In this document: positions 20,011-35,427 of the stretch, in pieces | How positions within the stretch are numbered: position 1 is the stretch's first letter | Layout: each line of letters begins with the position of its first letter | From: Corynebacterium jeddahense | GTDB lineage: Bacteria > Actinomycetota > Actinomycetes > Mycobacteriales > Mycobacteriaceae | Direction of reading: 5' to 3' | Assembly (NCBI RefSeq): GCF_028609865.1 | Contig: NZ_CP063194.1 | Coordinates: 496,001 to 560,000 of the forward strand | DNA length: 64,000 bases | Program-made: the position numbers and the translations under genes | The notes under the pieces: generated by a model | The model's database searches: none | Seen by the model: the letters and a program-made list of their open reading frames with translations, nothing else | Told to the model about the DNA's origin: nothing

Positions 20011-20042
20011 GTGGGCAATGTAGCCCGCTTGGTCTTGCGTTG

Positions 20043-20058
20043 TGTACTAAGCGGTCTA
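20043..20058 (-). promoter_or_regulatory. McbR-like operator upstream of metY
   Basis: TGTAC-TAAGCG-GTCTA: 8 of 10 arm positions of the McbR box, with the same TAAGCG spacer as at metX and, inverted, at metQ2. It lies about 20 bases upstream of the presumed -10, over the -35 region. Confidence 0.65.
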
Positions 20059-20214
20059 CTGCGGTTGTGTGGCCTGCCGGAACCGGTGAATCTAATTGGG
20101 GGGGACGGGAACTTTCGGCCCCTCAGGTGGAGACGAAAGGGGCTGGTTGTGAGGCCTAGCGTCTCGTAGGCTTCGCAGCAGATCGCCACATCGATGACCA
20201 GAAAGGGCACCACG

Positions 20215-20421
20215 TTGAACAAATCCACCGCCATCAGCATTGCCGCACTTGTGCTGCTCATCGCACTCATCGCTGCCGGGCTCGTGTTGAGCCAAAGCTA
20301 TTTCAACGCCAAAGAGCTGCAGGTGCTTCTCGACGGCGCGGCAGCACAGGACATCGGCTACGAGGTCCAGATCCACAACCCATGGACAGGGCGATACTCG
20401 TTCTTCCCCGAAGTGGGGTAG
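20215..20421 (+). CDS. Small single-pass membrane protein, 68 residues
   Basis: From the TTG at 20215 the product is a short N-terminus, one strong transmembrane helix (AISIAALVLLIALIAAGLVL), and an outside part with SYFNAKELQVLLDGAAAQDIGYEVQIHNPWTGRYSF. The start is chosen because AGAAAGGG lies at the right distance; an ATG seven codons upstream overlaps that site. A frameshifted paralogue with the same SYFNAKELQ and GYEVQIHNPWTG blocks lies at 32943-33148, also ending just before icd-derived sequence. Function is unknown. Confidence 0.65.
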   Translation: MNKSTAISIAALVLLIALIAAGLVLSQSYFNAKELQVLLDGAAAQDIGYEVQIHNPWTGRYSFFPEVG

Positions 20422-20436
20422 GAACCACCAACATCG

Positions 20437-20474
20437 ACGGCCGGCTGCAGGAAAACCCGCAGCCGGCCGTTTTT
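20437..20474 (+). terminator. Intrinsic terminator after the small membrane protein gene
   Basis: Perfect 12 bp stem ACGGCCGGCTGC (20437-20448) and GCAGCCGGCCGT (20459-20470) with a ten-base loop and a T-tract, 15 bases after the stop codon. Confidence 0.85.
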
Positions 20475-20507
20475 GGCTTGAAGGTCTCGAGCGGGCGCAT
20501 GACAGGG
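20475..20507 (-). pseudogene. icd: Short remnant of an icd 3' end
   Basis: Read on the minus strand this encodes VMRPLETFK, matching VMRPSETFN of the icd fragment at 22.4 kb and VMRPSATFN of the intact gene. The DNA match (TTGAAGGTCTCG, then CGGGCGCATGAC) is closer to the 22.4 kb fragment than to icd itself. It directly abuts the terminator. Confidence 0.55.
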
Positions 20508-20531
20508 TTCGGGGGGATCCCTCAACCCTGT

Positions 20532-20645
20532 CATAAGCAAGAAACAGTCAAGAAAACGTTTCTGCAGTTAAGAGAGTTATTTGAGCAATTTTAGGGCCGT
20601 TCTGGCACCCTTTTCCGGTTACGAAGCAAGAAAACTATTCGGCCC
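20532..20645. repeat. 114 bp direct repeat, left copy (DR-A)
   Basis: Runs from CATAAGCAAGAAACAG to ACTATTCGGCCC. The same 114 bases recur at 22141-22254 with about a dozen substitutions and no gaps. The right end overlaps the last codons of the AlbA_2-type gene. Internally it contains a repeated AAGCAAGAAA motif at both ends. Confidence 0.85.
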
Positions 20646-22113
20646 AGAAAGGGACGTAGCGGCGGTTGCGCGCTCCGGCATCCGGATCGTAGAGCCGGAT
20701 GAGGCCTCTGTCCACAGTGGCGTTAATAAGTCGGGTCGCCTGGGAAGCCTGCGAATCCCTGAGTCCGAAGCGATTTCGTATCGATGTGTTGGTAACGGCG
20801 CGATTATCCAGAAATCCAAGACAGGCATGCTGGTAGACGGCTTCGATCTTTTCATCCGTAGTCATTAGGTTGAAGGGCCGGTAGGCACTCAGCGTTACGG
20901 TTGTTGTGCCGTTTGTGCGAACAAGTGCCGGTGGAAAATGCTCTGCCTCCAGCGAAGCAACGATTTTGTCCCAGCCGCTTCCACGTTGCTCTACGAAGTG
21001 TGCGAGACGAAGCGCTTCGCCGAGGTGTGCATTACGAGTTGTAGAAGCCGAGTCAATAAAACGCTGGGGATTGACCAGCGGTGTACCAGGATTGGTCACT
21101 TCGACGCGGTCGCTGAAAAGCTCAACGGTCAAGTATTGACCGCGTTGTTCCAGGTCTTGGTGCATGAGCGCATTCGCGAATACCTCGCGAAATGCAACCG
21201 TAGGTAGCAGCGGGGTTTCAATTCGGCGGCCGTTTGGATCGATAGTCTCTCCACCGGGTCTCAACGTATTCACCAACGTCACGATCTGGCTAAACGACGT
21301 GGCGTATCCCTCGTCAAACTCCCACTCTCGTTGCAGTTGAGTCCTTGATGTGTCACCGAAGAGCATCACTCGTGGGGCCAAACCGGCGAGGTGTGGGAAG
21401 TCGTTGAGCGAGCGCGCGTACATCAGCGCAGACCAGGCTGGAATACACCAGCCCAATTCGTGAGAATATGTGATCGCTTCCGCTGCTCGCATCGTGTCGA
21501 TGAGGGCATTGCCAACATTGCGTGGCAGTTCCGGCCGGTTGGTAAAGAATGCCTCAGAAGAGAGAAGCGCGGTGATCTCTTCGGGCTCGAGACCGTCCGC
21601 GGCGTTGCTGGTTTCAAACTCGAATTGGTTGAGCTTTCTCCACAACTCGCGCTCGCGATCTGGAAAGTCCATTAGGTTTTTGGTGTAACTGCCCTGTCGG
21701 AAGTAACGGGCTCCGTCGTAGGCGTAAGGGGCCGAGAAGGCAGCCGGAATCCGGAGAAGAACCACGGTTTTGCCTTCGATTGTGACCGACTCGAAGGAGA
21801 TCGTCGGCGTGGGGGAAATTACACGCTGCAGCCAGGGAAAAAGATCTTCGTTGCCTTTCCCTTTCACTATCTCCCATTGGAACGAAGTACCTACGAATTC
21901 ATGCGTATCACTTACACCCCAGATCAGGTAGCCAGCTGGTTCATCATGAAGACGTGCTGAGTTGCCTAACGCGCAGACATACTTGGCGATTTCCGGGCCG
22001 GTCGTTGCGCTGTTTTCCTTAAACTCCAACCAGGGGAGTTCCGCAGGCAAATCGACGAATCGTTGGATCCTAGCGATGAGTTGAGGCTCCGGCGTGGAGT
22101 TGAGTGGCGACAT
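20635..22113 (-). CDS. AlbA_2-domain / HATPase-type DNA-binding protein
   Basis: A 492-residue protein of the group often called RecG-like or divergent AAA_4/AlbA_2. The N-terminal AlbA_2 (Schlafen-type) domain has LPWLEFKEN, IAKYVCALGNSA, GYLIWGV and ARYFRQGS. A HATPase_c_4-like region follows (VAFREVFANALMHQDLEQRG, DRVEVTNPG, RGSGWDKI), then a C-terminal winged helix (NTSIRNRFGLRDSQASQATRLINATVDRGLI). Relatives act as regulators or in defence islands; the specific role is unknown. It is enclosed by the 114 bp direct repeats, with none of the flanking genes in its operon, so it looks like a mobile single-gene cassette. Confidence 0.75.
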   Translation of the reverse strand: MSPLNSTPEPQLIARIQRFVDLPAELPWLEFKENSATTGPEIAKYVCALGNSARLHDEPAGYLIWGVSDTHEFVGTSFQWEIVKGKGNEDLFPWLQRVISPTPTISFESVTIEGKTVVLLRIPAAFSAPYAYDGARYFRQGSYTKNLMDFPDRERELWRKLNQFEFETSNAADGLEPEEITALLSSEAFFTNRPELPRNVGNALIDTMRAAEAITYSHELGWCIPAWSALMYARSLNDFPHLAGLAPRVMLFGDTSRTQLQREWEFDEGYATSFSQIVTLVNTLRPGGETIDPNGRRIETPLLPTVAFREVFANALMHQDLEQRGQYLTVELFSDRVEVTNPGTPLVNPQRFIDSASTTRNAHLGEALRLAHFVEQRGSGWDKIVASLEAEHFPPALVRTNGTTTVTLSAYRPFNLMTTDEKIEAVYQHACLGFLDNRAVTNTSIRNRFGLRDSQASQATRLINATVDRGLIRLYDPDAGARNRRYVPFWAE

Positions 22114-22140
22114 GCCTCAAGTATCCCCCTAAAACCGGGC

Positions 22141-22254
22141 CACAAGCAAGAAACAGGCAAGAAAACGTTCCTGCAGGTAAGAGAGTTTTTGGAGGGATTT
22201 AAGGGCCGTTCTGGCGCCCTTTACCGGTTACGAAGCAAGAAAACTACTCGGCCC
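22141..22254. repeat. 114 bp direct repeat, right copy (DR-B)
   Basis: Same length and orientation as DR-A, about 89% identical by eye. It begins 27 bases upstream of the AlbA_2 gene start, and its right end leads directly into a scrap of dnaE2-like sequence. Confidence 0.85.
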
Positions 22255-22306
22255 GGCCACCGCAAGCGGAGTGACCATTTTGGGCGTGGAGGAGGAGACC
22301 GGGCTG
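22253..22306 (+). pseudogene. Scrap of a dnaE2-like gene (C-terminal OB fold)
   Basis: Translates as PATASGVTILGVEEETGL, matching PATAGGVTFLGMEDETGL near the C-terminus of the intact DnaE2 at 9670-9720. The similarity stops at about 22306, where the icd-type terminator begins. It differs from the local dnaE2 at many silent and some coding sites, so it was probably not copied recently from that gene. Confidence 0.65.
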
Positions 22307-22310
22307 AACG

Positions 22311-22351
22311 AAAACCGGCTGGTCGGGGGATGAAACCCCGGGCCAGCCGGT
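22311..22351 (-). terminator. Terminator downstream of the icd fragment
   Basis: On the minus strand, ACCGGCTGG and CCAGCCGGT arms (22351-22343 and 22322-22314) enclose a second CCCC/GGGG stem and are followed by TTTT. It sits about 75 bases past the icd fragment stop, where an icd terminator would be expected. Confidence 0.75.
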
Positions 22352-22427
22352 CATTCAAAGGCGACGGCCCAGGTACGCTACCAGGACCGGCGTCCGAGCC
22401 GGCGGCCCGGACGGTCAACCTTGAGGG

Positions 22428-22775
22428 TTACTTCAGGCCGTCGATGATGCGGTTGAAGGTCTCGGACGGGCGCATGACGGCGTTGGCCTTGGCGTCGTCC
22501 GGCCAGTAGTAGCCGCCGAGGTCGGCGGGCTCACCTTGGGCGTCGAGAAGCTCGCGGTCGATCTGCTCGGCGTTCTCGCGCAGCTCGGCCGCGATCGGCT
22601 CGAAGGTGGAAGCCAGCTCAGAATCCTCGGTCTGGGCGGCGAGTGCCTCTGCCCAGTAGAGGGAGAGCCAGAAGTGGGAGCCGCGGTCGTCGATCTCGCC
22701 GACCTTGCGGGACGGGGACTTGCCCTCCTCCAGCAGCTTCTCGGTGGCCTGGTCCCGCGCAGCCGTGAGGGCGCC
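22428..22775 (-). pseudogene. icd: 3' fragment of a second icd (isocitrate dehydrogenase) gene
   Basis: Encodes the last ~116 residues of a monomeric isocitrate dehydrogenase, from [19 protein letters not shown] through [24 protein letters not shown] to VMRPSETFNRIIDGLK and stop. It is collinear with the C-terminus of the intact icd at 33.2 kb but differs at many residues (for example ASTFEPIAAELREN against [14 protein letters not shown]), so it comes from a different allele. No start or catalytic core is present and it cannot make an active enzyme. It has the same orientation as icd and its own terminator. Confidence 0.88.
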
Positions 22776-22900
22776 GACGTGCTCAGGTAGATGAAGGCTC
22801 GTCGAAGCGGTACAGATGCGTGAGCAGCCGTCGCTGCACCGTGCCTGGGAACCCAAACTTGGCAAGATGTAGAGATTGGGTAGGGTTGCAAATCACAAAG

Positions 22901-22943
22901 GTAGGTTTTCCTACTTGTATCACACAAATTCGAATTTGATAAT
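22901..22943 (+). promoter_or_regulatory. Promoter with palindromic operator for the bacteriocin operon
   Basis: TTGTAT (22915-22920), 17-base spacer, GATAAT (22938-22943). The spacer holds a perfect 12 bp palindrome, AAATTCGAATTT (22926-22937), and a GTAGG-TTTT-CCTAC hairpin (22901-22914) adjoins the -35. These look like sites for a repressor or activator that is not encoded in the operon. Confidence 0.55.
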
Positions 22944-22996
22944 TGGATCACGGCGGAAGTACCTCCGCTTCTGAATACCTACCGAAGGGAGGAACC

Positions 22997-23290
22997 ATGA
23001 AAATTCAAAATCGAAACCGCATCACTGGTGCAGTTTTGGCGGGTGCGTTGACCCTTGCCGGCACGGGTGTTGCTGGGGCGACGATTGTCAGCATTGACGG
23101 AGGAACCTGGGATTATGGCAGTGATTCTTCCACAGTGTGGTCCCACTACTTTCACAACGGCGTCCCGCATGGCTCTACAGCTGTTGGGAAGTTTCGGTCA
23201 GATAGCGGCTGTGTGAACAAGAACGTGTGGTCACGCGCCACTGCTCCGCGCAAGGGAATTGGCAATGAGTCCTTCTACCGCCATTGCTAG
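22997..23290 (+). CDS. Lactococcin 972-family bacteriocin precursor
   Basis: A 97-residue secreted peptide precursor. A Sec signal peptide (MKIQNRNR, hydrophobic stretch, VAGA) is followed by a mature part of about 69 residues with the family landmarks GGTWDYG, YFHNGVPHGSTAVGKF and SGC, and an aromatic/basic C-terminus (FYRHC). Lactococcin 972 blocks septum synthesis by binding lipid II in related Gram-positives; the target range here is unknown. The ATG at 22997 follows GGGAGG. The immunity/permease gene begins three bases after the stop and the ATPase follows, the standard three-gene order of this bacteriocin class. Confidence 0.8.
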   Translation: MKIQNRNRITGAVLAGALTLAGTGVAGATIVSIDGGTWDYGSDSSTVWSHYFHNGVPHGSTAVGKFRSDSGCVNKNVWSRATAPRKGIGNESFYRHC

Positions 23291-23293
23291 AGC

Positions 23294-25282
23294 ATGTCTC
23301 TTCTGAAATCAGGCCTATTAGCCGTGGGGATATTCGCCACGGCTATTCTGGCCACTACCGTGGCTTTCCTCGGCGCGAGTCTCTACTCAACGATCGATGG
23401 TCACCTGGGTGAGTACGGGGTACAGGTGGAATCAGATCGCACCGCTTCGGAGCGCGCGAGTTTCTATTCCGAGCTGGCCGACTTTGCGCGAAGTAATGAC
23501 TTCGATATCGCGATTAACTACTCGTCGCTCGCTGTCTCTGGTGGTGAGCAGCGAGTCTACTCATCCTCGCTTCCGCCTGACGGCGGTCGGATGGAACGGC
23601 CGCGCTTTGAACGCGGGGAAGTTGACATATTTTATCCGCTGGAAGACTTTCCATACCCTGATCCGAGGCAACCTCTCCATATCAAAGGGTCTGCGACGGA
23701 CGAGCAGCACTTGCTGCGGTGGTTAGCCGAACAGGGGCTCGACGGGGTGCCTCTTACCCGTTACTTCTCCGAAATCTTTGCATCTTCGACAATTCCCATT
23801 CTGCTGATCTTATCTGTGCTCCTGTGTCTGGTACTAGGCGCGGGCCATGTCCTTGCCCGCTCGCGGGAGGTCGGTGTTCATCGACTACTAGGGCTCAGCG
23901 TCGCAGAAACGACCTGTATTGAAATTCAGCGCCAAAGATTCGCGCTTACGATCGCCTACCTCGGAGTCCCACTGCTTGTTGCTGGCCTTCTTTACGCCTA
24001 CAACGGGTGGGCGGAGAGCTGGGTATTTTGGAGAATTTATTTCACGATCAGCGTGATTCTGTCAGTGTGTTTGCTCGTTGGTTACCTGGGTGGGCAGTTT
24101 CTGGTTCGCAGGACATCGATACCTCAATCCATCAAGGGCAAGATCCACGCGCGGCCAATTCTCTATTCCCTGACCGTCGTCCGCGGCGTGACCCTGGTTG
24201 CTGCGCTCAGCGTGGTTGCAACCCTGGTCGGGTTTACGGCGGAACTTGAGGCGCGTCACCGCTTGCAGGGGGCGTGGGATATGCACCGTGGGCCGCAAGA
24301 GTTGGCGCTAAACGTCAACACCGCCTTCGAAGATTGGTCAGATACAGAGACTGCAGTGCCGTTCCGGGTTGCTGACGAGGCGGGAGACGTACTCCTCGTT
24401 GATCCTTATTGGATTACATGGCCCGTGGAATTAGAGGCACCAGTTCTATTGGTGAACCAGGAATTCGCGCTACAGGCGGGAATGTCGATGTTGGAAGGTG
24501 CTGTTGTGACGGTCTGCTCACCGGGGGAGTTGTCTGTGCACTCGAGAAACGTGATCGAGGAATCGCTCGAGTTCGAGGCTGGCTACACCAATGAACCAGC
24601 ACCCGAGATAGAGTGGCGCGAAAGCTGTAGCTTGGGCTCGGTATTCACTTACGATGTTGAGTACCGTCCGCAAGTAGAGAACCCGATTCTCGTCATCCTT
24701 CCGCGTGGCCTCGCTCCGTTGGGGGACCACAACTTGATGTCAAAGGTAGCCCAGCAAGTCCTTCTCACTGCCTCCCCTGATGTGCCTTCGAAAATGTTGA
24801 AGGGTGCCACCGGGAACACACTTGCTTTTTCTAGGCCGCGTGAAGACTCATGGCAGGCGAGCATTCGCACCGCCGAGCAGAATGTGGCTCTGTGGGGGCT
24901 AAATGGTTTTGCATCAGTCCTGCTTGTGACGGTCTTGGTCGGAGCCACTATCCTGACTTTTCGTCTTACTTACCGGCGCAAAATTCACGTTGCCTATGTT
25001 TGTGGGCGAAGCCCTTGGTGGGTTGCAAAAGAAGCAGTAGCTTTCGAAGTTGCATTTTTCCTAGCCATGATTGGCTGGCTGCTCTATAAGGTTCGCGATC
25101 ATTGGATTCAAGCCGAGAGCCGCGTACCGTCAACTTGGAGTATCGGGTTTGAAAATCAATGGACACCATCCACCATTTTCGCAGTAGTAGGTTTCGGCGC
25201 AGTATGGTTCGTGGTTTCTGTGGGGTTGATGCACAAAGCTGCGTCGCAGTGGGATGCTAGAGGAGATGCGGAACCGCAATGA
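23294..25282 (+). CDS. Bacteriocin-associated integral membrane protein (permease/immunity)
   Basis: A 662-residue membrane protein with an N-terminal helix (about residues 8-30), a large outside domain, membrane segments near 150-180, 210-270 and 300-320, a second outside domain, and C-terminal segments near 530-560, 580-600 and 630-655. This is the layout of the large membrane protein that accompanies lactococcin 972-like peptides (seven-transmembrane bacteriocin immunity/ABC permease type, MacB/FtsX-like). It likely works with the downstream ATPase for self-protection and/or export. Base composition is lower in GC than the core genes. It overlaps the ATPase gene by four bases. Confidence 0.75.
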   Translation: MSLLKSGLLAVGIFATAILATTVAFLGASLYSTIDGHLGEYGVQVESDRTASERASFYSELADFARSNDFDIAINYSSLAVSGGEQRVYSSSLPPDGGRMERPRFERGEVDIFYPLEDFPYPDPRQPLHIKGSATDEQHLLRWLAEQGLDGVPLTRYFSEIFASSTIPILLILSVLLCLVLGAGHVLARSREVGVHRLLGLSVAETTCIEIQRQRFALTIAYLGVPLLVAGLLYAYNGWAESWVFWRIYFTISVILSVCLLVGYLGGQFLVRRTSIPQSIKGKIHARPILYSLTVVRGVTLVAALSVVATLVGFTAELEARHRLQGAWDMHRGPQELALNVNTAFEDWSDTETAVPFRVADEAGDVLLVDPYWITWPVELEAPVLLVNQEFALQAGMSMLEGAVVTVCSPGELSVHSRNVIEESLEFEAGYTNEPAPEIEWRESCSLGSVFTYDVEYRPQVENPILVILPRGLAPLGDHNLMSKVAQQVLLTASPDVPSKMLKGATGNTLAFSRPREDSWQASIRTAEQNVALWGLNGFASVLLVTVLVGATILTFRLTYRRKIHVAYVCGRSPWWVAKEAVAFEVAFFLAMIGWLLYKVRDHWIQAESRVPSTWSIGFENQWTPSTIFAVVGFGAVWFVVSVGLMHKAASQWDARGDAEPQ

Positions 25283-25893
25283 CAATTCAGGTAAACGAAG
25301 TATCCTGCGCATTTGGCGAGCGGACGATTTTGCAAGCTTTCACAGCCACGTTTAGGGCAGGTCGAATCACGGCGCTTACGGGGCCCTCCGGCAGCGGCAA
25401 AACAACCTTGCTCAATATGTTAGGTGGGCTGACTACGCCGGATTCGGGGACGATCGAGTTCGAGGGGCTCGACATTGCATCTATGAATTCGCGCGCACGT
25501 CGCAAATTTCGGCGAGCAAACGTCGGGTATCTGTTTCAGGACTACGGTTTGGTCTCCGATCTTTCTGTGATCGAGAACATCAAGATCGCTGTTCCCCGCG
25601 TCTCCCGCGAAACAATGGAGTCGGCGCTGAATGAAGTCGGACTTGGCGGATCCGAGAAGCGAACGGTGAGCGAACTTTCTGGTGGTGAGCAACAACGCAT
25701 CGCTTTGGCACGACTCATTCTCGCGCAGCCGAAAATAGTGTTAGCAGATGAGCCAACCGGAGCCCTCGATAAAGCAAATGCGCAACTCGTTCTTAAACAT
25801 CTACGCCATTTTGCTCAGGAAGGCGCAGTAGTCGTCGTAGCCACCCATTCTGCGTTTATTTCAAATAATTCAGATGAGGTAGTGGAGCTCTGA
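25279..25893 (+). CDS. ABC transporter ATP-binding protein of the bacteriocin operon
   Basis: A 204-residue stand-alone ATPase of the MacB/LolD type. Walker A is GPSGSGKTT (about residues 35-43), the Q-loop LFQDYGL, the signature LSGGEQQRIALARL, Walker B IVLADEPTGALD and the switch His in ATHSAF. Short single-domain ATPases like this accompany lactococcin 972-type precursors. Translation is coupled to the permease through an ATGA overlap. Confidence 0.88.
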   Translation: MTIQVNEVSCAFGERTILQAFTATFRAGRITALTGPSGSGKTTLLNMLGGLTTPDSGTIEFEGLDIASMNSRARRKFRRANVGYLFQDYGLVSDLSVIENIKIAVPRVSRETMESALNEVGLGGSEKRTVSELSGGEQQRIALARLILAQPKIVLADEPTGALDKANAQLVLKHLRHFAQEGAVVVVATHSAFISNNSDEVVEL

Positions 25894-25989
25894 TGTAGCG
25901 GAAACAAATAGCTGGGATCGAGCGTCACCCCTGTACTTGTCGGATGCGCAGTCGTTTGGTGACGCGTAGGCAGCACCTAGCGACTACGG

Positions 25990-26054
25990 GAGGGGTGGCG
26001 TTTGGGAATGGAAGGCGAGACTGGGCTGATCAACGTGGTTGTCTCGGTCGGGCA
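25990..26054 (+). pseudogene. Second scrap of a dnaE2-like OB fold
   Basis: After a two-base deletion is allowed, the DNA follows the dnaE2 3' region and encodes GVAF plus GMEGETGLINVVVSVG, matching GVTFLGMEDETGLVNVVISVG. Recognisable similarity fades after the SVG and the truncated IS256-type element begins at about 26172. The intervening ~115 bases remain open but match nothing I know. Confidence 0.6.
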
Positions 26055-26171
26055 CAGCGTTTCCCAGCCGGCTAACGCCGGTGGCGAGACCTTCCTCGTA
26101 CTCAAGACGATCCAGGTCACCATGAACGGTCTCGTCATCGCCCTGCGCAACGCAGGGGAGGTTGTCTGCTC

Positions 26172-27148
26172 ACCGGCTCACAGAACTCGACGACATGATC
26201 GTCTCGCTCTACGCCGGTGGGATGACCGTGCGCGATATTCAGCACCATTTAGCGACCACCCTTGGGGTGGATATGAGCCCGGATACGATCAGCACCATTA
26301 CCGATGCGGTCTTGGAAGAGGTCATGATCTGGCAGAACCGTCAGCTCGACGAGTTTTACCCGGTGATCTTCCTCGACGCACTCCGAGTCAAGATCCGTGA
26401 TGGCCACCGCGTGGTCAACAAGGCCTGATATATGGCTGTCGGTGTGGACATCGACGGCATCAAGCACATCCTGGGATTGTGGATCGCGGAAAATGAAGGT
26501 GCTGCATTCTGGGCATCGGTGTGCGCGGATCTGGCCAACCGTGGCGTCCAGGACGTGTTCATTGTCTGCTGCGACGGGCTCAAAGGCCTGCCAGAAGCCG
26601 TGGAGGCAACCTGGCCGAATTCGATGGTGCAGACCTGTATTGTGCACCTGATTCGGGCTGCGAACCGGTGGGTGTCGTATCAGGACCGCAAATCTGTCTC
26701 CCGTGCGCTGCGTGAGGTCTACACGGCCGCCAACGAAGACACCGCGCGAGCCAGCCTGGTTGCTTTCGAGGCCAGTGAACTAGGCCGTAAATACCCGCAG
26801 TCGGTCAAAGTTTGGCGTGATGCGTGGGAGCGGTTCGTGCCGTTTCTGCAGTTCCCGCCGGCGGCACGCCGGGCGCTCTACACCACCAATTCAATCGAGT
26901 CGCTCAATGCTGAATTGCGTAAAGCTACCCGTAACCGGGGCCAATTCCCGAACGATACTGCGGCGCTGAAAACGCTGTGGCTGATGATCTGCAACATCGA
27001 AGACAAGCGCGCCGCCCAGCGCGCGAGGAAAGCGAAGCGCGACATTGAATGCAACGGCTATATTGAAGGAGCGAAAGCCACCGGGTGGAAACAAGCCATC
27101 AACCAACTAGCCGTGGCTTACCCCGACCGATTAGCGGACTACTTGTAA
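26172..27148 (+). pseudogene. Truncated IS256-family transposase with nonsense mutation
   Basis: Starts inside the coding sequence at RLTELDDMIVSLYAGGMTVRD and carries the catalytic-domain blocks (FLDALRVKIRDGHR, VCCDGLKGLPEA, TTNSIESLNAELRKATRNRG). A TGA at 26426-26428 replaces the TGC Cys codon of the complete copy (HRVVNKACYMAV), splitting the frame. A few further substitutions separate the copies. Not functional. Confidence 0.9.
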
Positions 27149-27183
27149 ACCAAGCCCCCGCACACAAATAATCGGACACTCTC
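26172..27183 (+). mobile_element. 5'-truncated IS256-family insertion sequence
   Basis: Corresponds to the last ~1.0 kb of the complete element at 27782-29222, in inverted orientation to it. The right end is intact (CGGACACTCTC at 27173-27183 matches the other copy's terminal repeat); the left terminal repeat and about 135 codons are missing. No target duplication is recognisable, as expected after deletion. Confidence 0.88.
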
Positions 27184-27459
27184 AGCAATTGGATCTGGCA
27201 CTAAAACTCTCCAACCCAAAGAAAACTGGCACAATCCTACAGATCCAGGGGGGTCGACGACCGACTGAGGCGACTGCAGACTAGCATACGGCCCCAATAC
27301 CAAGCAAAACTCACACCACAACTCCATTTTGCGGGAGGCTACCTAATGGATAAGTCAAACTTCTCAAATGTGAAACTCTCTGAAGAGTTCTTTCATATTT
27401 CTTTCACTCCCACCAATTGGCTTACGGACCCCTGGAAGTGCATCGAAGCGACTGAGAGA

Positions 27460-27469
27460 CCCGACCCGA
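27460..27469 (+). repeat. 5 bp tandem duplication causing a frameshift
   Basis: CCCGA occurs twice in a row. With one copy removed the frame reads ERPDSAVLETFDTEKF continuously; with both, the frame from the ATG at 27346 leaves the homologous sequence. Confidence 0.6.
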
Positions 27470-27781
27470 CTCGGCCGTGCTCGAAACATTCGACACTGAG
27501 AAATTCAAGGAGAACTACTCCCGAAAGGCAGCTGTCCTTTCGGATGTAAGAAGCAGTCTTTCAGGAAATATTGTCGACGACATCATTATTATCATGGAGC
27601 ACGAAAGGTTTCTAAAAGGACCGAAAGGCAACCTTCTCCATGATGGAGTGACGAACCGTGCCAAAATCGAAACTGCAGTAACCAACGGGGTCCCTATAGA
27701 AATTGTCATCCCTTCATTTGCGGGTCGCCCACATAATCCTGCAGCTCATAAGCGAGTAGCTCCCGACTTAGGTGAAATGTA

Positions 27782-29222
27782 GAGAGTGTCCGATTCTTTG
27801 TGCGCGGGGGTTTGGTTTACAAGTAGTCCGCGAATCGGTCGGGGTAAGCCACGGCTAGTTGGTTGATGGCTTGTTTCCACCCGGTGGCTTTCGCTCCTTC
27901 AATATAGCCGTTGCATTCAATCTCGCGCTTCGCTTTCCTCGCTCGCTGGGCGGCGCGCTTGTCTTCGATGTTGCAGATCATCAGCCACAGCGTTTTCAGC
28001 GCCGCAGTATCGTTCGGGAATTGGCCCCGGTTACGGGTAGCTTTACGCAATTCAGCATTGAGCGACTCGATCGAATTCGTGGTGTAGAGCACCCGTCGTG
28101 CCGCCGGCGGGAACTGCAGAAACGGCACGAACCGCTCCCACGCATCACGCCAAACTTTGACCGACTGCGGGTATTTCCGGCCGAGTTCACTGGTCTCGAA
28201 CGCATCCAGGCTGGCACGTGCGGTGTCTTCGTTGGCGGCCGTGTAGACCTCACGCAGCGCACGGGAAACTCCCTTGCGGTCCTGATACGACACCCACCGG
28301 TTCGCAGCCCGAATCAGGTGCACAATGCAGGTCTGCACCATCGAATTCGGCCAGGTTGCCTCGACAGCTTCCGGCAAGCCTTTGAGTCCGTCGCAGCACA
28401 CGATGAACACGTCCTGGACACCGCGGTTGGCCAGATCCGCGCACACCGATGCCCAGAATGCAGCGCCTTCATTGTCCGCGATCCACAATCCCAGGATGTG
28501 CTTGATGCCGTCCATGTCGACACCAACCGCCATGTAGCAAGCCTTGTTGACCACGCGGTGGCCATCACGGATCTTCACGCGCAGCGCGTCGAGGAAGATC
28601 ACCGGGTAAAACTCATCGAGCTGACGGTTCTGCCAGATCATGACCTCTTCCAAGACCGCATCGGTAATGGTGCTGATCGTATCCGGGCTCATATCCACCC
28701 CAAGGGTGGTCGCTAAATGGTGCTGAATATCGCGCACGGTCATCCCGCCGGCGTACAGCGAGACGATCATGTCGTCGAGCTCTGTGAGTCGGCGTGCACC
28801 TTTCGGCACCATCCGGGGAGTAAACGTGCCGGCACGATCCCTGGGCACAGTCACTTCCACCGGGCCGTAGCCAGAATCGACGGTCTTGGTGTACGACCCG
28901 TTGCGGTGATTGCTGCCCCGCCCGGTTTCCACCTGGGCTTTCGCCTTGCGGTCGGAATGGCCGTAACCCAAATGCGCATCCATCTCCGCCTGCAAACCAG
29001 CGTTGATCGATGCCTGCAGCAAGCCTTTGACCAGCTCGCTTGCATCATCAGCCGAGGTCGACAGTTCACTGATCAAACTGGCGAGCTCAGGATTTTCCAT
29101 CAGCTTCTCGCTGATCTCGTTGACCCTCGCCGGGTCATGGTTCTTCTTCGGTGACACCGTAGTCATTATCGGTGAAACTCCTTCTCAATCAGAGCCTCAC
29201 ACACAAACTTCCTGACACCCTC
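27782..29222 (-). mobile_element. Complete IS256-family insertion sequence (1441 bp)
   Basis: Bounded by imperfect terminal inverted repeats (GAGAGTGTCCGATTCTTTGTG at the left, GAGGGTGTCAGGAAGTTTGTG inverted at the right). It is flanked by a perfect 8 bp target duplication, GAAATGTA, at 27774-27781 and 29223-29230. It encodes one transposase. It sits inside the Dit1/PvcA-type gene. Confidence 0.95.
27817..29166 (-). CDS. IS256-family transposase
   Basis: A 449-residue mutator-type transposase. The N-terminal region holds the DNA-binding part (ASINAGLQAEMDAHLGYGHSDRKA, GNYRNG-like GSNHRNGSYTKTV). The catalytic core has Asp in FLDALRVKIRD, Asp in VCCDGLKGLP and Glu in TTNSIESLNAELRK, the DDE set of the family. 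The ATG at 29166 is preceded by AAGGAG. Intact and probably active, in agreement with the perfect target duplication. Confidence 0.95.
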   Translation of the reverse strand: MTTVSPKKNHDPARVNEISEKLMENPELASLISELSTSADDASELVKGLLQASINAGLQAEMDAHLGYGHSDRKAKAQVETGRGSNHRNGSYTKTVDSGYGPVEVTVPRDRAGTFTPRMVPKGARRLTELDDMIVSLYAGGMTVRDIQHHLATTLGVDMSPDTISTITDAVLEEVMIWQNRQLDEFYPVIFLDALRVKIRDGHRVVNKACYMAVGVDMDGIKHILGLWIADNEGAAFWASVCADLANRGVQDVFIVCCDGLKGLPEAVEATWPNSMVQTCIVHLIRAANRWVSYQDRKGVSRALREVYTAANEDTARASLDAFETSELGRKYPQSVKVWRDAWERFVPFLQFPPAARRVLYTTNSIESLNAELRKATRNRGQFPNDTAALKTLWLMICNIEDKRAAQRARKAKREIECNGYIEGAKATGWKQAINQLAVAYPDRFADYL

Positions 29223-29980
29223 GAAATGTATGCTCTTCTCTATCTCTTAGATATTTCAGATGCCGTGAGAGAAGTGTATCCACCAGGACTACTGTTTACA
29301 CTCATTCTTGACGGAACAATTTATCGACCTTTCTACGGGTACGCCCACAATGAAGCTGTCCCCTACGAGGAGAACCTAAACCGGCAGATTTCAGCACTTG
29401 AAGCAGAAAATTCTCTGCGAACTACCGATATGTGGCCCATCTACCAAGAACGAAAGAATGAAGCCGCTGCGATCGAAGTAGAAGTAAGAGAGCTCGTTTC
29501 GAGTCAGTGGAATGATCACGACCTTCCCGCCAGGCAAGATCTAATTGCCGCCCTTCGCCAGGGGGTTGAAACCACTCCCATAACTGTAGCTCTGATTGAG
29601 ATGTACAAGAGTGGGTCTTACAAGAATGTTGACCTAGATAGTTTCTTCATTCGCGCAGAAAAGGCCCTTCTCAAGAGAGCAGAGCACGCCGCGTTCGAAT
29701 ACACCGTGCTTCTGACCATTATGCGTAGACTCGACCTGGTAATGACCGCATTCCCAGATGCTATCCGTGGAACAGTGCACCCTAAGCCAGATCAGTACTC
29801 TCCCATTATGCGCGATGCCAAAACTGTGATTTCCCCTTGGCATGGCACAGCGATCGTCCGTCTAGATGGCTCCATCGTAACGGAGTATGAGGCTATTGTT
29901 TTTCAAGAGCCAGAGCGCTATAAAGCATGGTTTGTAAGGGGAGATGAAGCCCCCTTCTACTATGAAGAAATCAAACTGCC

Positions 29981-31210
29981 TTGATCAAACTTCCGAAAAG
30001 TTCGACGAAAAGCACCCTTGGGTTAATCTGGCCGATAGTTGCCACCCAAATCTGCGTATCCGCCGCGGTGGGACTAAATCTTACTATCGCCGCACTTGCA
30101 GCCGTTGAGGTTACAGGCAAGGAATCATTAGGGGGACTAGCCCAGACAAGCACCATCTTAGGTGCCACATTTATTACCATAACGGCAACGAGAATCAGCA
30201 TCCTCAAGGATAGGCTGTTTGCACTACGATGCACTATTGGTGTGGCTGCACTGGGATCTCTCGTTGCACACTTTGCCATCTCTACTAAAGGCTCCAGCGG
30301 ATGGCTTCTCTTCGTTGGACTATTTCTCCTTGGCGGTGGCACGGTAAGCGCACTTATTTCTCGCTTTACAGCCACTGAGAAAATCGGGCAAAATCAACAG
30401 GCCGCATCTGCAGTTGGCATAGTACTTTTTGGCTCCGCGATAGGCTCTGTAATAGGTCCAAATATATATGGCCTCATCTCTCTAAACGTCGAATCACCGA
30501 TGGAATGGGCATTCGTCGGGTCTGCTCTAACCTTCATTGTTGGACTGCTGGCCCTATCTTTTGAGAGGCGTCAAAGCTACACATCGGGGACCCCACGCTC
30601 GACTGCCTCTTTAGAATCAGGACGTCTCATATGGAAGCAATCCTATGTTTTTATATTCGCCACCGGCATCATTGCCCATGCATCAATGATTAGCCTGATG
30701 ACAATGGCACCCATTTACACTGATAGAGTTTTTGGTCCGTCTAAATCTGGAATCGTGATGACAGCTCACCTACTCGGCATGTATGCCATCGGACCTTTTG
30801 TGAGTTCTAGCCTTAATCGGTTCGGACTCATTAAGACGATTTCGTGGGGAGCAACCGCCTTTCTAATCTCGATTTTTCTCTTAGTTTTTCTGCATAGCTC
30901 TTTTATCCTGTTTACTGTGGGTCTCTTTGGAATCGGAGTGTTTTGGTCGGTAGGTATGATAATCTCCTCCACCCTTGCCTCTAAGATTGATGACACGGAC
31001 CAGCGCATGGCGCTCCAGGGCAGACTGGATCTGACCATAAATATTGCAGCGGGCGTAAGCTCTACCCTGTCTGGCATCTTAGTGACCATGATCGGATATC
31101 CACTGCTTGCGGGGCTAGTCTTCGCTTTTGCATTCCTTGCTTTCGTTTCCGTATTTTCACTGAAACCGCCTCAGATCGAAAGGGCAGATACACCACTAAC
31201 TAGGACTTGA
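29981..31210 (+). CDS. MFS transporter (drug/metabolite efflux type)
   Basis: A 409-residue protein with about twelve hydrophobic helices in two halves and a loop near residues 190-215. Charged motifs are weak, but SRFTATEKIGQNQQAASAVGIVLFGSAIGSVIGPN in the first half suits the major facilitator superfamily. The TTG at 29981 overlaps the TGA of the isocyanide-synthase-like gene, indicating one operon; an ordinary role would be export of that pathway's product. Base composition is clearly lower in GC than the core genome. It remains open even though its partner is destroyed. Confidence 0.78.
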   Translation: MIKLPKSSTKSTLGLIWPIVATQICVSAAVGLNLTIAALAAVEVTGKESLGGLAQTSTILGATFITITATRISILKDRLFALRCTIGVAALGSLVAHFAISTKGSSGWLLFVGLFLLGGGTVSALISRFTATEKIGQNQQAASAVGIVLFGSAIGSVIGPNIYGLISLNVESPMEWAFVGSALTFIVGLLALSFERRQSYTSGTPRSTASLESGRLIWKQSYVFIFATGIIAHASMISLMTMAPIYTDRVFGPSKSGIVMTAHLLGMYAIGPFVSSSLNRFGLIKTISWGATAFLISIFLLVFLHSSFILFTVGLFGIGVFWSVGMIISSTLASKIDDTDQRMALQGRLDLTINIAAGVSSTLSGILVTMIGYPLLAGLVFAFAFLAFVSVFSLKPPQIERADTPLTRT

Positions 31211-31230
31211 CCCGTGCAGCAGGACAGCGC

Positions 31231-31734
31231 ATGACCGACGCTGCGATCATCGACGCCTACGAACAGGCCTACAACACCGCACAACGCTTCGGAGCTGATG
31301 GGCGTGACGACGAAATGCCGCCGATGCGCGACCGCCAAACAATGGCCCGCCGCGTGCGCGGCTACGTCACGCAGTCCAAGAGCGGCTCATACACAAGTAC
31401 ATCCGCCCCGGGACGCGCGACAAGCTCAGAACGCAAAGCCCTCGCCACAATGGGCCGCAAAGGCGGAAAGAAAGCCGCAGAACGATGGACAACCGATCCA
31501 AACGGGGAATACGCCCAAGCCCAGCGTGCCACGATGAAGAAGACCCACCGAAAAAAGAAAGTCCAGGGAACGAGTAACCGCCAGAAGGTTGGCCAATTCG
31601 TAAACGAGTATTGGATCGAGACTGGACGCTTGCCAACGTGGAGAGAGATTCAGACGGAGACAGGGTTCTCCCGGGCTACGGTCGCGCGACACGTTGCCGC
31701 ACTCAAGGAAGCAGACGAGTGGCCTGATCTGTAG
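31231..31734 (+). pseudogene. C-terminal remnant of a corynebacterial plasmid RepA
   Basis: About 167 residues with DAYEQAYNTAQRFGADGRDDEMPPMRDRQTMARRVRGYV, then RKALATMGRKGGKKAAERW and a basic KKTHRKKKVQG, ending in a helix-turn-helix (LPTWREIQTETGFSRATVARHVAALKEA). From memory this is the C-terminal third of replication initiator proteins of the corynebacterial theta/rolling-circle plasmid families; the catalytic N-terminus is missing. The frame stays open upstream to 31207, overlapping the MFS stop. It could also be a chromosomal DNA-binding protein. Composition is higher in GC than the MFS gene beside it. Confidence 0.55.
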
Positions 31735-31920
31735 GGGTCTCACACCGTAAGCAATATACGGTTCCCCTGCCGTGAGGCAGTGGGTGGAGAAGAACTTGCT
31801 TTAAAGAAGTTTTGGGTAGCGAAAGACCCGGGGAGCTATAGGGGGAGTGCTCAACCCAGGCCCTCTAGGGTAGGTATTTTTGGAGAGGATCTGAGGCGCT
31901 ATTCCATATCTGGCGCCAGC
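31735..31920. other. Non-coding stretch after the rep remnant
   Basis: Holds a small hairpin (CCGTA-AGCAATA-TACGG near 31747-31763), a stretch with TTTAAAGAAGTTTTGGG, and GC-rich runs. It may be the plasmid region that follows rep; no gene seen. Confidence 0.35.
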
Positions 31921-31932
31921 TAGGATGAGTCC

Positions 31933-32313
31933 GTGGTGACTAAACGCTCATATATGTCTCTGACTGAAGAGGTCTTCCTCTATGCGACAGACCACGATTT
32001 GGAATATGCTGCAGAGCAGGTCGTCAAGGCGATACGATCTAAAATCCCCTTAGTGGGTGAACCGACCGTAGAGTCTACCGCACTTGCGGTAGATGAATTT
32101 GATCTAGAACGTCAATGGATCGATGATTTCGGTACTCCCGTAAATCCAGAAGTGCTAAACCTAAATAGAGTCAAGATCTCTTTTATGGCCGCATCTACCC
32201 ACGAAGAAATCGAGCACATTGGTGAAGCCATCTACTCTACGATTAGGGAACTTAGTCGTAGAAGGAAAATAGCCTACTTCAGTATGCTGAGTGAGTGCTC
32301 TAACGGGGAGTGA
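31933..32313 (+). CDS. Hypothetical protein, 126 residues
   Basis: I do not recognise this soluble, acidic protein. Its N-terminus (SLTEEVFLYATDHDLEYAAEQVVKAI) and C-terminus (STHEEIEHIGEAIYSTIRELSRRRKIAYF) are predicted helical. The GTG start at 31933 is supported by TAGGAT (31921-31926), a -10-like hexamer ending six bases upstream, as in other leaderless genes of the window. AT-rich codon use fits the island rather than the core genome. Confidence 0.5.
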   Translation: MVTKRSYMSLTEEVFLYATDHDLEYAAEQVVKAIRSKIPLVGEPTVESTALAVDEFDLERQWIDDFGTPVNPEVLNLNRVKISFMAASTHEEIEHIGEAIYSTIRELSRRRKIAYFSMLSECSNGE

Positions 32314-32340
32314 TCCTGACGGCACAGTGTCACTAAATAC

Positions 32341-32444
32341 GGTTGCGTCCCTTAGTGTGGTGTAACGCTTGCTGACGGTGGCCGCCCCTGCATTTCCCAG
32401 GGCCCACCATCAGCAAGCGTCACACCAAACTAAGGGACACAACC
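32341..32444. mobile_element. MITE-like 104 bp palindrome
   Basis: Two 41-base arms (32341-32381 and 32404-32444) form an inverted repeat with four mismatches around a 22-base centre. The outer ends read GGTTGYGTCCCTTAGT, like transposon terminal repeats. No transposase is enclosed and I see no clear target duplication. Either a miniature element or the fused ends of an IS that lost its middle. Confidence 0.75.
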
Positions 32445-32535
32445 TTGGCTTGGGCAGAAGTCTGGTTCAACGAGCGCTGACAAACGCGGAAACCTGAGAA
32501 GATAAGACGCACCACAACCGCGAGCGTTCCCGGAA

Positions 32536-32913
32536 GTGGACCTTGACAATGGCGTGTTTGAGAATGTGCGGGCTCAGCTCAATGCATTGAGCGAAAGCGA
32601 GGTGGATGAGATTCTCGTGGCCAATGGCTACGACCCGGTGCAGCTACGCGATGCTGAAGCATAGGCAACTGCCAACGTTGCTCCCATCGTCTGGGGCGCT
32701 GGAGTTACGATTGCCTCGTTGGTTGCCGGTGCGTTGATTTCTACTGCGACGTACTTCAATCACCAGGAAAAGATGAAGCTCATCGACGAATGCGGACGGG
32801 CCTCCGGCTATCCCGAGGTAGATTCGCGTGACAGCGGAGGGGTGGATGGCACCACCGACGCCTATGAAGCCCAGGCAGCTGGCGGCTACAAATTTCAGTG
32901 CAGGAAGCGCTAG
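32536..32913 (+). pseudogene. Small membrane protein gene with in-frame TAG
   Basis: An open frame from the GTG at 32536 gives a soluble segment (VRAQLNALSESEVDEILVANGYDPVQL), then an in-frame TAG at 32662-32664, then continues in the same frame with a transmembrane helix (PIVWGAGVTIASLVAGALISTATYF) and an acidic tail ending GGYKFQCRKR. It reads as one ~125-residue protein split by a nonsense codon. The downstream half could also start at an internal codon. It lies directly upstream of the frameshifted relative of the 20.2 kb gene. Confidence 0.45.
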
Positions 32914-32942
32914 CGCACCACCCACACTGGAAAGGACCCACT

Positions 32943-33148
32943 ATGAACCGCACCACAGCCGTGAACGTGATTGCACTCGTGCTTTTATCGCATTCATTGT
33001 GGCTGGGCTCGTGTTGAGCAAGAGCTACTTCAATGCGAAGGAGCTGCAGGCGCTCCTTGACGGCGCCGCTGAGCAGGGAATCGGCTACGAAGTCCAAATT
33101 CATAACCCCTGGACCGGGGATTACTCCTTTCACCCCGAGGCGAGATAG
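32943..33148 (+). pseudogene. Frameshifted paralogue of the small membrane protein at 20.2 kb
   Basis: Begins MNRTTAVNVIALVL like the 20215 gene (MNKSTAISIAALVL), then loses one base in the CTTTTA run near 32984 and continues in another frame as AFIVAGLVLSKSYFNAKELQALLDGAAEQGIGYEVQIHNPWTGDYSF. The two copies are otherwise collinear over their whole length. A GGAAAGGA ribosome-binding site is kept. Confidence 0.7.
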
Positions 33149-33173
33149 CCGCGCGGGCGAACTACAGTGCAAC

Positions 33174-33215
33174 AAAAACGGCCGGTGCCGGGGCGCGAAC
33201 CCCCGACATCGGCCG
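33174..33215 (-). terminator. Intrinsic terminator of icd
   Basis: Minus-strand stem CGGCCGATGTCGGGG with CCCCGGCACCGGCCG (two wobble or mismatch positions), seven-base loop, then a T-run (33178-33174). It starts 17 bases after the icd stop. Confidence 0.8.
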
Positions 33216-33231
33216 ATCTCAGATCAGCGAG

Positions 33232-35427
<2,196 letters not shown>

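What the first reader, a model, noticed from the sequence alone, without database searches (positions are those of the whole stretch)
27346..31210. Broken isocyanide-synthase (Dit1/PvcA-type) and MFS export operon
Virtual removal of an IS256-type element and one 5 bp duplication unit gives a continuous ~394-codon gene with PDLGE and YPPG...DG family marks, overlapping an MFS gene. Dit1/PvcA proteins make isonitrile or formyl-tyrosine products, as in paerucumarin and yeast dityrosine, where an MFS exporter is also used. A synthase plus exporter without an oxygenase would be a minimal and possibly undescribed corynebacterial metabolite pathway, here inactivated.
Basis: partly seen in the sequence, partly recalled or inferred. 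Interest (0 to 1): 0.75.

Follow-up and report, generated by a model that had tools for sequence, protein, structure and literature searches.

The report
Broken isocyanide-synthase and exporter gene pair
A Corynebacterium genome carries the recently broken remains of a two-gene unit, one gene for an enzyme of the isocyanide-making family and one for a membrane exporter, and intact copies in other bacteria suggest a very small, movable pathway for making and exporting an unknown metabolite.

Summary
At 27346-31210 a DIT1_PvcA (PF05141) gene is split by a 1441-bp IS256 element with an 8-bp target duplication and is followed, with a 4-bp overlap, by an open MFS gene. The second lesion is a short frameshifting deletion, not the proposed 5-bp duplication. 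Intact copies exist in three other Corynebacterium genomes, Mycetocola and Rathayibacter (type A) and, diverged, Leuconostoc gelidum (type B): 9 of 9 type-A/B loci, broken ones included, have an MFS gene directly downstream. No TauD-family (PvcB/IsnB) gene was found anywhere in those nine genomes, whereas 6 of 13 canonical PvcA-like loci have one within 1.5 kb. The enzyme is a distinct clade keeping 17 of 50 positions invariant in ten canonical proteins, so substrate and exact product (isonitrile or N-formyl amino acid) are unknown. Best reading: a mobile "make and export" metabolite cassette, recently inactivated here. Chemistry, transport direction and role are inferred. No structure model was obtained (service busy).

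The parts
26167..27183 (+). Truncated IS256-family copy (transposase ORF 26432-27148) abutting the 5' side of the synthase/exporter block
   Evidence: 95% identity to the inner IS; PF00872 at E 4.1e-61; the block shared with relatives begins at 27184
27346..27468 (+). Synthase fragment 1: N-terminal part, intact-profile positions 1-41; ends at a short frameshifting deletion near 27.46 kb
   Evidence: frame change located by DNA alignment to an intact relative
27453..27781 (+). Synthase fragment 2: middle part, profile positions 38-147, in another frame, carrying the PD..E mark and ending at the IS
27774..27781 (.). Left copy of the 8-bp target-site duplication
   Evidence: present once in two intact relatives
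27782..29222 (-). IS256-family insertion sequence, 1441 bp, transposase ORF 27817-29166 on the minus strand
29223..29230 (.). Right copy of the 8-bp target-site duplication
29223..29984 (+). Synthase fragment 3: C-terminal two thirds (profile about 145-397) with the DG, HPKP and PWHG marks; matches DIT1_PvcA on its own
   Evidence: PF05141 57 bits; 96% identical to the intact G042 protein
29981..31210 (+). Open MFS transporter gene (409 aa, listed start TTG, overlaps the synthase stop by 4 bp), probable exporter
   Evidence: 94.7% identical to the MFS next to the intact synthase in G042
27184..31206 (+). Extent of the shared block (inserted IS left out): the same two-gene block with about 160 bp of upstream DNA lies between different flanks in G042 and G184
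   Evidence: blastn of window 20000-34000 against each 19-kb stretch; flanking ORFs

Best explanation
This is the remnant of a two-gene, horizontally moved metabolite cassette. The first gene encodes a diverged member of the DIT1_PvcA (isocyanide synthase) family. The second, overlapping and probably translationally coupled gene encodes an MFS exporter. In the intact unit the enzyme would condense the amino group of an amino acid with a one-carbon donor (ribulose 5-phosphate in characterised relatives: PMC7345447 passages; PMC7949033 abstract in a listing) to give an alpha-isocyano acid, or its N-formyl hydrolysis product, and the MFS protein would export it with no TauD-type Fe/2OG or P450 tailoring. 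In the window the synthase was recently inactivated by an IS256 insertion and a short deletion, while the exporter frame is open. Shown: family membership, gene pair, its conservation, absence of TauD genes, lesions, constraint on the synthase until recently. Inferred: chemistry, export direction, coupling, role.
For: PF05141 over cut-off on the window piece and on intact relatives. A profile of the clade matches the solved PvcA structure 3e59 at E 9.8e-33 and 9dhm at 2.7e-28. hhalign to ten canonical PvcA-like proteins gives 99.85% probability over 282 columns. MFS directly downstream on the same strand in 7 of 7 type-A loci (own, G042, G184, G053, G131, Mycetocola, Rathayibacter; the first three are 94-99% alike and so not independent) and 2 of 2 type-B loci (C. 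oculi, MFS frame broken; Leuconostoc); overlaps of 4 or 1 bp or gaps of 2-9 bp in the eight with an intact MFS frame. Baseline: 27 MFS match stretches in the 2.57-Mb own genome. Searched with the Leuconostoc MFS, 3 of 5 genomes gave the synthase-adjacent MFS as their only match (3-11 first-look candidates scored per genome). No TauD (PF02668) match in the 9 genomes of types A and B; no P450 match in 3 of these 9, and in the other 6 none near the synthase. Control: canonical loci have a PvcB-like neighbour in 6 of 13 and a related MFS in 0 of 13; A/B/C loci have PvcB in 0 of 13. Mobility: GC 0.46-0.48 in a 27-kb stretch of 0.60 and different flanks; 7 of 242 genus genomes have the family at all. 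Recency of loss: the last 144 synthase codons show 7 synonymous and 0 non-synonymous changes on the window lineage.
Against: The enzyme keeps only 17 of 50 positions invariant in 10 canonical actinobacterial PvcA-like proteins; several strongly conserved positions (FxED region, SxAW, H of GHVF) are lost, so the activity may differ. NCBIfam's L-Tyr isonitrile synthase model gives only 21.7-84.8 bits against a cut-off of 600; three canonical proteins also miss that cut-off (249-290 bits). Type-C relatives in Lentzea (two) and Actinomadura show no related MFS within 6 kb, and the MFS next to the Allokutzneria synthase matches none of the others. The Leuconostoc MFS found nothing in G053 and a different place in Mycetocola at E 0.0014. 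Only the TauD and P450 families were tested; other oxygenases were not. G042 has a HAD hydrolase gene just upstream, so the unit may have had a third gene. No promoter-like site was found upstream. No structure model was obtained (17 busy answers).
Confidence: 0.62

Rival explanations
1. The enzyme is a Dit1-like N-formyl amino acid maker rather than an isonitrile maker; the MFS is the counterpart of yeast Dtr1 and exports a formylated amino acid used at the cell surface.
For: Dit1 was reported not to be an isocyanide synthase, and PvcA does not replace it (PMC7345447, passages). [quoted passage not shown] An ICS with an MFS and no Fe/2OG partner resembles dit plus DTR1 (the DTR1 papers were seen only as a search listing; the link is otherwise recalled).
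Against: A fungus chosen for its Dit1-like protein accumulates the tyrosine isonitrile itself (PMC13005658, passages). No P450 (Dit2 counterpart) is next to the pair, and none was found in G184, Mycetocola and Leuconostoc. No Dit1 sequence was available to place in the tree.
Confidence: 0.2
2. The synthase homologue has a different reaction altogether (another acylation or condensation of an amine), and the MFS exports or imports that compound.
For: 33 of 50 canonical invariant positions are not kept throughout type A. The type-A stem is long (1.46 changes per column).
Against: The D/E, DG, Y, R, HP and PW core is kept in types A, B and C almost throughout, and the only significant matches among solved structures are PvcA-type proteins.
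Confidence: 0.13
3. The MFS gene is an unrelated drug efflux pump that happens to lie next to the synthase.
For: MFS genes are common (27 match stretches in the own genome), three type-C loci show no related MFS, and the Allokutzneria MFS is of another kind.
Against: 9 of 9 type-A and type-B loci, in different flanks and two phyla, with related MFS proteins; overlaps of 4 or 1 bp in six of them.
Confidence: 0.05

Closest known systems
PvcA / IsnA (with PvcB / IsnB), L-Tyr or L-Trp isonitrile synthases of paerucumarin, rhabduscin and hapalindole pathways
   Same: Same Pfam family PF05141, profile match to PvcA 3e59, conserved PD..E, DG, HP and PW core
   Different: 21-28% identity to canonical actinobacterial relatives, separate starred clade, no PvcB/IsnB-family (TauD) match in the nine A/B genomes, MFS gene next door instead
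Yeast Dit1 with exporter Dtr1
   Same: Single-domain PF05141 enzyme working with an MFS exporter (Dtr1 from a search listing, and recall)
Fungal ICS gene clusters, about 60% of which hold an MFS gene (PMC10153163, passages)
   Same: ICS plus MFS is the commonest pairing there
   Different: That paper states that all characterised bacterial and fungal ICS clusters contain tailoring enzymes; no TauD or P450 tailoring gene lies by the pair described here
Phycomyces blakesleeanus tyrosine isonitrile, ascribed to a Dit1-like enzyme (PMC13005658, passages)
   Same: Precedent for the untailored alpha-isocyano acid as a stable product
   Different: Fungal; no exporter mentioned in the passages seen
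IS256 family insertion sequences
   Same: Transposase family, 8-bp target duplication, imperfect terminal inverted repeats
   Different: Nothing unusual

Membership tests
DIT1_PvcA (Pfam PF05141) | Score over the curated cut-off of 26.4 bits | tested here: met
   Window 3' piece 57 bits; intact relatives of types A, B and C 70-120 bits; G131, with its internal deletion, 22 bits, below it
DIT1_PvcA (Pfam PF05141) | Core conserved residues PD..E, DG, Y, R, HP, PW | tested here: met
   Kept in all 5 intact type-A proteins (the H after PW is Q in G184); in the window PD..E lies in fragment 2 and DG, Y, R, HP, PW in fragment 3
PvcA-type L-tyrosine isonitrile synthase (NCBIfam NF045653) | Score over the equivalog cut-off of 600 bits | tested here: not met
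   21.7 bits for the window piece, 40-84.8 for four intact relatives; three canonical actinobacterial proteins 249-290, also below it
PvcA/PvcB or IsnA/IsnB two-enzyme pathway | Fe/2OG (TauD, PF02668) partner | tested here: not met
   0 matches in the 9 type-A/B genomes, 10 in Allokutzneria; 0 of 13 A/B/C loci against 6 of 13 canonical loci
Dit1/Dit2 dityrosine pathway | P450 partner | tested here: not met
   None near any A/B locus; no P450 match in 3 of 9 A/B genomes
Isocyanide synthase in the functional sense | Makes an isonitrile from an amino acid and ribulose 5-phosphate | not testable with these tools
   Needs expression and mass spectrometry
PvcA fold | Predicted structure matches 3e59/9dh4 | tested here: inconclusive
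   Sequence profile match E 9.8e-33; the structure prediction itself never ran
MFS_1 (PF07690) | Score over the cut-off of 33.4 bits | tested here: met
   77.9 bits
IS256 family | IS256 transposase (NF033543) and an 8-9 bp target duplication (range recalled) | tested here: met
   394.6 bits, cut-off 150; 8-bp repeats

The most novel reading that the evidence does not exclude
A minimal, self-contained 'make and export' cassette, one isocyanide-synthase-family enzyme and one dedicated MFS exporter with no tailoring oxygenase, moves horizontally between bacteria of two phyla and releases an untailored alpha-isocyano (or N-formyl) amino acid that acts outside the cell, for example by binding metals or blocking copper enzymes. 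Loss of the synthase with the exporter kept (the window and G131) would then leave non-producers that still pump out, and so tolerate, the compound.
Probability: 0.25. Interest if true: 0.72.

Novelty: new variant of a known kind. Interest (0 to 1): 0.55.

Why it matters
The described route to vinyl isonitriles and isocyanoacrylates pairs the synthase with a Fe/2OG oxygenase (PMC9467999, passages), and the fungal survey PMC10153163 (passages) says all characterised clusters include tailoring enzymes. A conserved synthase-plus-exporter pair in genomes without any TauD match predicts a simpler product that cluster finders may miss (PMC5126622, passages, says antiSMASH did not detect isnAB then). 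Intact copies in Mycetocola, Rathayibacter and Leuconostoc gelidum give directly testable, small systems, and breakage seen in three Corynebacterium genomes (the window's, G131, C. oculi) makes the pair a natural case of gain and loss of a small metabolite.

Tried and rejected
The 5-bp duplication as cause of the frame change was rejected by alignment with an intact relative. A first genome-contig scan, for which the tool chose two N-terminal patterns, found nothing; a scan with a C-terminal profile found 11 loci among 40 pattern matches. Plasmids: 3 records, 23-25% identity; the one opened (Hymenobacter) has a TauD neighbour. Phages: no match. Defence-gene library: no match for the four proteins given. 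IS element in plasmids: one partial match, Corynebacterium stationis. Phylum-wide search with the type-A profile: beyond the own genome only 2 weak matches in 396 genomes. Class-wide search with the A/B/C profile: 16 of 394 genomes at E<=1e-10; apart from the own genome and G184 the matches score 65-96 bits and are mostly partial. Dropped before the A/B/C counts: L062 (short MAG contig), L065 (fragment), L068 (divergent MAG), L006, L036 and L082 (standalone, divergent; only about 1.5 kb of flank held), G199 (fragment, L016). Type C is not a supported clade (2 changes, one origin in 54% of bootstrap trees). The paper with the PvcA structure was not held. Literature: isonitrile synthase or isocyanide synthase with Corynebacterium gave 0 papers; at least two of isocyanide synthase, MFS transporter and PvcA gave 13 papers, judged by title and abstract start only, none on a bacterial synthase-MFS pair; a five-term search with 'major facilitator' and IsnA gave 2 papers, both looked at as passages. 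This covers only the held open-licence library.
Full report
Where it lies. The window is bases 496001-560000 of a one-contig, 2.57-Mb genome. The genus is Corynebacterium by inference: genome G193, labelled 'same genus', has its family match on a contig of 826293 bases, and a contig of that length in the named collection, with the same gene, is Corynebacterium oculi NZ_LKST01000001.1. The species was not determined.

The observation. The 3' piece (29202-29981) matches Pfam DIT1_PvcA at 57 bits over a cut-off of 26.4, and the family has a single match in the genome and none in 14 control genomes. A profile made from two intact relatives finds three consecutive pieces here, profile positions 1-41, 38-147 and 140-397. 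Between pieces two and three lies an IS256-family element, 27782-29222, with an 8-bp duplication on both sides. Two intact relatives carry that site once, and the element has four other copies at 100% (rounded) in the genome, so the insertion looks young. Between pieces one and two the frame changes at a short deletion. The MFS gene (29981-31210) is open and overlaps the synthase end by 4 bp. A second, truncated IS256 copy abuts the block at 27183.

Intact copies. Within the genus 7 of 242 genomes hold the family at E<=0.001, 6 of them over its cut-off. Five carry the same type (A): the window's genome; G042 and G184 (intact, 397 codons from the shared start, 99% identical to each other; window piece 96% identical to G042); G053 (intact, 71% identical to G042); and G131, whose synthase has lost an internal part including the PD..E and DG motifs while its MFS is open. 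One, C. oculi, carries a diverged type (B) with its MFS frame broken in two; its synthase also ends early against its relatives, which I did not pursue. One (G199) holds only a fragment that looks canonical by its motifs (not in the tree). Outside the genus the second scan of the named genome collection gave 11 loci. Mycetocola tolaasinivorans and Rathayibacter sp. VKM Ac-2856 carry type A (46-49% identical to the intact Corynebacterium proteins), and Leuconostoc gelidum, a different phylum, carries type B (46% identical to C. oculi).

The pair. In types A and B together, 9 of 9 loci have an MFS gene directly downstream on the same strand; the window, G042 and G184 copies are close kin and not independent. 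Among a looser set (type C), Allokutzneria has an MFS gene 133 bp downstream, but one that matches none of the others; G352 has a related one about 2.1 kb downstream; two Lentzea and one Actinomadura have no related MFS within 6 kb. The type-A and type-B MFS proteins are related to each other across phyla, at 21-31% identity between the types. Searching five genomes with the Leuconostoc MFS, three (own, G042, Rathayibacter) returned the synthase-adjacent MFS as their only match, one (Mycetocola) returned another place at E 0.0014 and one (G053) nothing; 3-11 first-look candidates were scored per genome. The block shared by the window, G042 and G184 runs from about 160 bp upstream of the synthase to about the end of the MFS gene, with no further blastn similarity in 14 kb of window against 19-kb stretches except IS256 copies in G184, and the flanking ORFs differ. 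Its GC is 0.46-0.48 in a 27-kb stretch of 0.60. Two genes moving together as a unit is the simplest reading. G042 has a HAD hydrolase gene of the same low GC just upstream, so a third member cannot be excluded.

No oxygenase of the known kinds. The described bacterial routes use a Fe/2OG enzyme (PvcB, IsnB) after the synthase (PMC9467999, passages). TauD-family genes (PF02668) gave no match in any of the nine genomes that carry types A or B, not only near the pair; Allokutzneria has ten. Cytochrome P450 genes gave no match in three of the nine (G184, Mycetocola, Leuconostoc) and lie far from the synthase in the rest: on another contig or more than 250 kb away. As a control, 6 of 13 canonical PvcA-like loci of the same order have a PvcB-like gene within 1.5 kb and 0 of 13 have a related MFS gene; 0 of 13 type A/B/C loci have a PvcB-like gene although their stretches are longer, 12-19 kb. 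Other oxygenase families were not searched.

What the enzyme is. A profile of the clade finds the solved PvcA 3e59 at E 9.8e-33 and the isonitrile synthase family entries 9dhm and 9dh4 at 2.7e-28 and 4.1e-28. Profile-profile comparison with ten canonical proteins gives 99.85% probability over 282 columns. In a tree of 32 proteins types A and B and the canonical group are each set apart by branches at 100/100; the canonical proteins (with one Hymenobacter plasmid protein) and the rest lie on opposite sides of a 100/100 branch. Of 50 positions invariant in the canonical set, types A, B and C keep 17, 21 and 18 throughout. Kept almost throughout are F, N, PD..E, DG, Y, R, HP and PW (type B lacks the P of PD..E, one type-C protein has ES for DG, another Y for F). 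Lost are the FxED region, the SxAW block and the H of GHVF, and the K of the FPxK motif is R in type A. I read this as the same fold and probably the same kind of reaction, with a changed pocket. Which residues are catalytic was not established here: the structure paper was not held, and structure prediction never ran.

Selection and loss. Window versus G042: synthase 3' piece dN 0.014, dS 0.097; MFS dN 0.034, dS 0.152. On the window's own branch the last 144 synthase codons have 7 synonymous and 0 non-synonymous changes (G042 branch 4 and 0), and the MFS gene 17 and 10 (G042 branch 13 and 5; outgroup G131). The synthase was therefore under constraint until recently. Two of five type-A Corynebacterium copies have a broken synthase next to an open exporter; C. 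oculi has a broken exporter. G184 carries PWQG for PWHG, but type B and three of four type-C proteins compared also have Q there, so this need not mean loss of function.

How it most likely works. In intact strains the enzyme makes an alpha-isocyano acid from an amino acid and a sugar phosphate carbon, or a product that ends as the N-formyl amino acid, and the MFS protein sends it out. There is precedent for both halves: a fungus with a Dit1-like protein accumulates the untailored tyrosine isonitrile (PMC13005658, passages), and MFS genes are the commonest partner in fungal clusters, about 60% (PMC10153163, passages). Steps shown: family, pairing, conservation, absence of TauD matches, lesions. 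Steps inferred: substrate, product, direction of transport, role. Possible roles are metal binding or inhibition of copper enzymes, as for other isonitriles (PMC10153163, passages).

Novelty. Searches gave no paper that joins isonitrile or isocyanide synthases with Corynebacterium, and none seen, by listing or passages, describes a bacterial synthase-MFS pair, within an open-licence library only. I rate it a new variant of a known kind: known enzyme family and known transporter family, in a minimal pairing that the sources seen here do not describe for bacteria.

Noticed in passing
window 22943-25893: A lactococcin-972-like small secreted peptide (TIGR01653 31.7 bits, just under the cut-off of 32.1) with a 662-aa protein weakly like bacteriocin-associated membrane proteins (TIGR01654 37.5 bits, cut-off 189.35) and a bacteriocin-export type ABC ATPase (TIGR03608 212.5 bits, cut-off 254.85), just upstream of the IS256 remnant.
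   Followed up: partly
L051 10265-10945 and L057 10196-10789: HAD-family hydrolase genes next to the synthase in G042 (upstream, same low GC) and beside a type-C synthase in G352, where an AMP-binding ligase and an MFS gene are also close.
   Followed up: partly
L032-L035 and L037-L045: Thirteen proteins with open frames of 961-1231 aa, all in one family of the same order (f14), carry a partial DIT1_PvcA match inside a much longer chain; three of them and one from f5 form their own clade in the tree.
   Followed up: no
L016 144-1866: G199, same genus, keeps only a C-terminal synthase fragment (1402-1866, PF05141 101.5 bits over profile 135-267) beside ORFs that read like a frame-broken MFS gene (no family search made on these).
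   Followed up: no
L066 5287-7466: A synthase-family gene with an overlapping MFS gene in Leuconostoc gelidum, a lactic acid bacterium.
   Followed up: partly
L063 5041-7637 and L064 5071-7903: In two Lentzea species the type-C synthase lies near a cupin-like protein gene, with a rhodanese-like gene as well in L. flava, instead of a related MFS gene (the cupin and rhodanese names come from reading the sequences, not from a family search).
   Followed up: no
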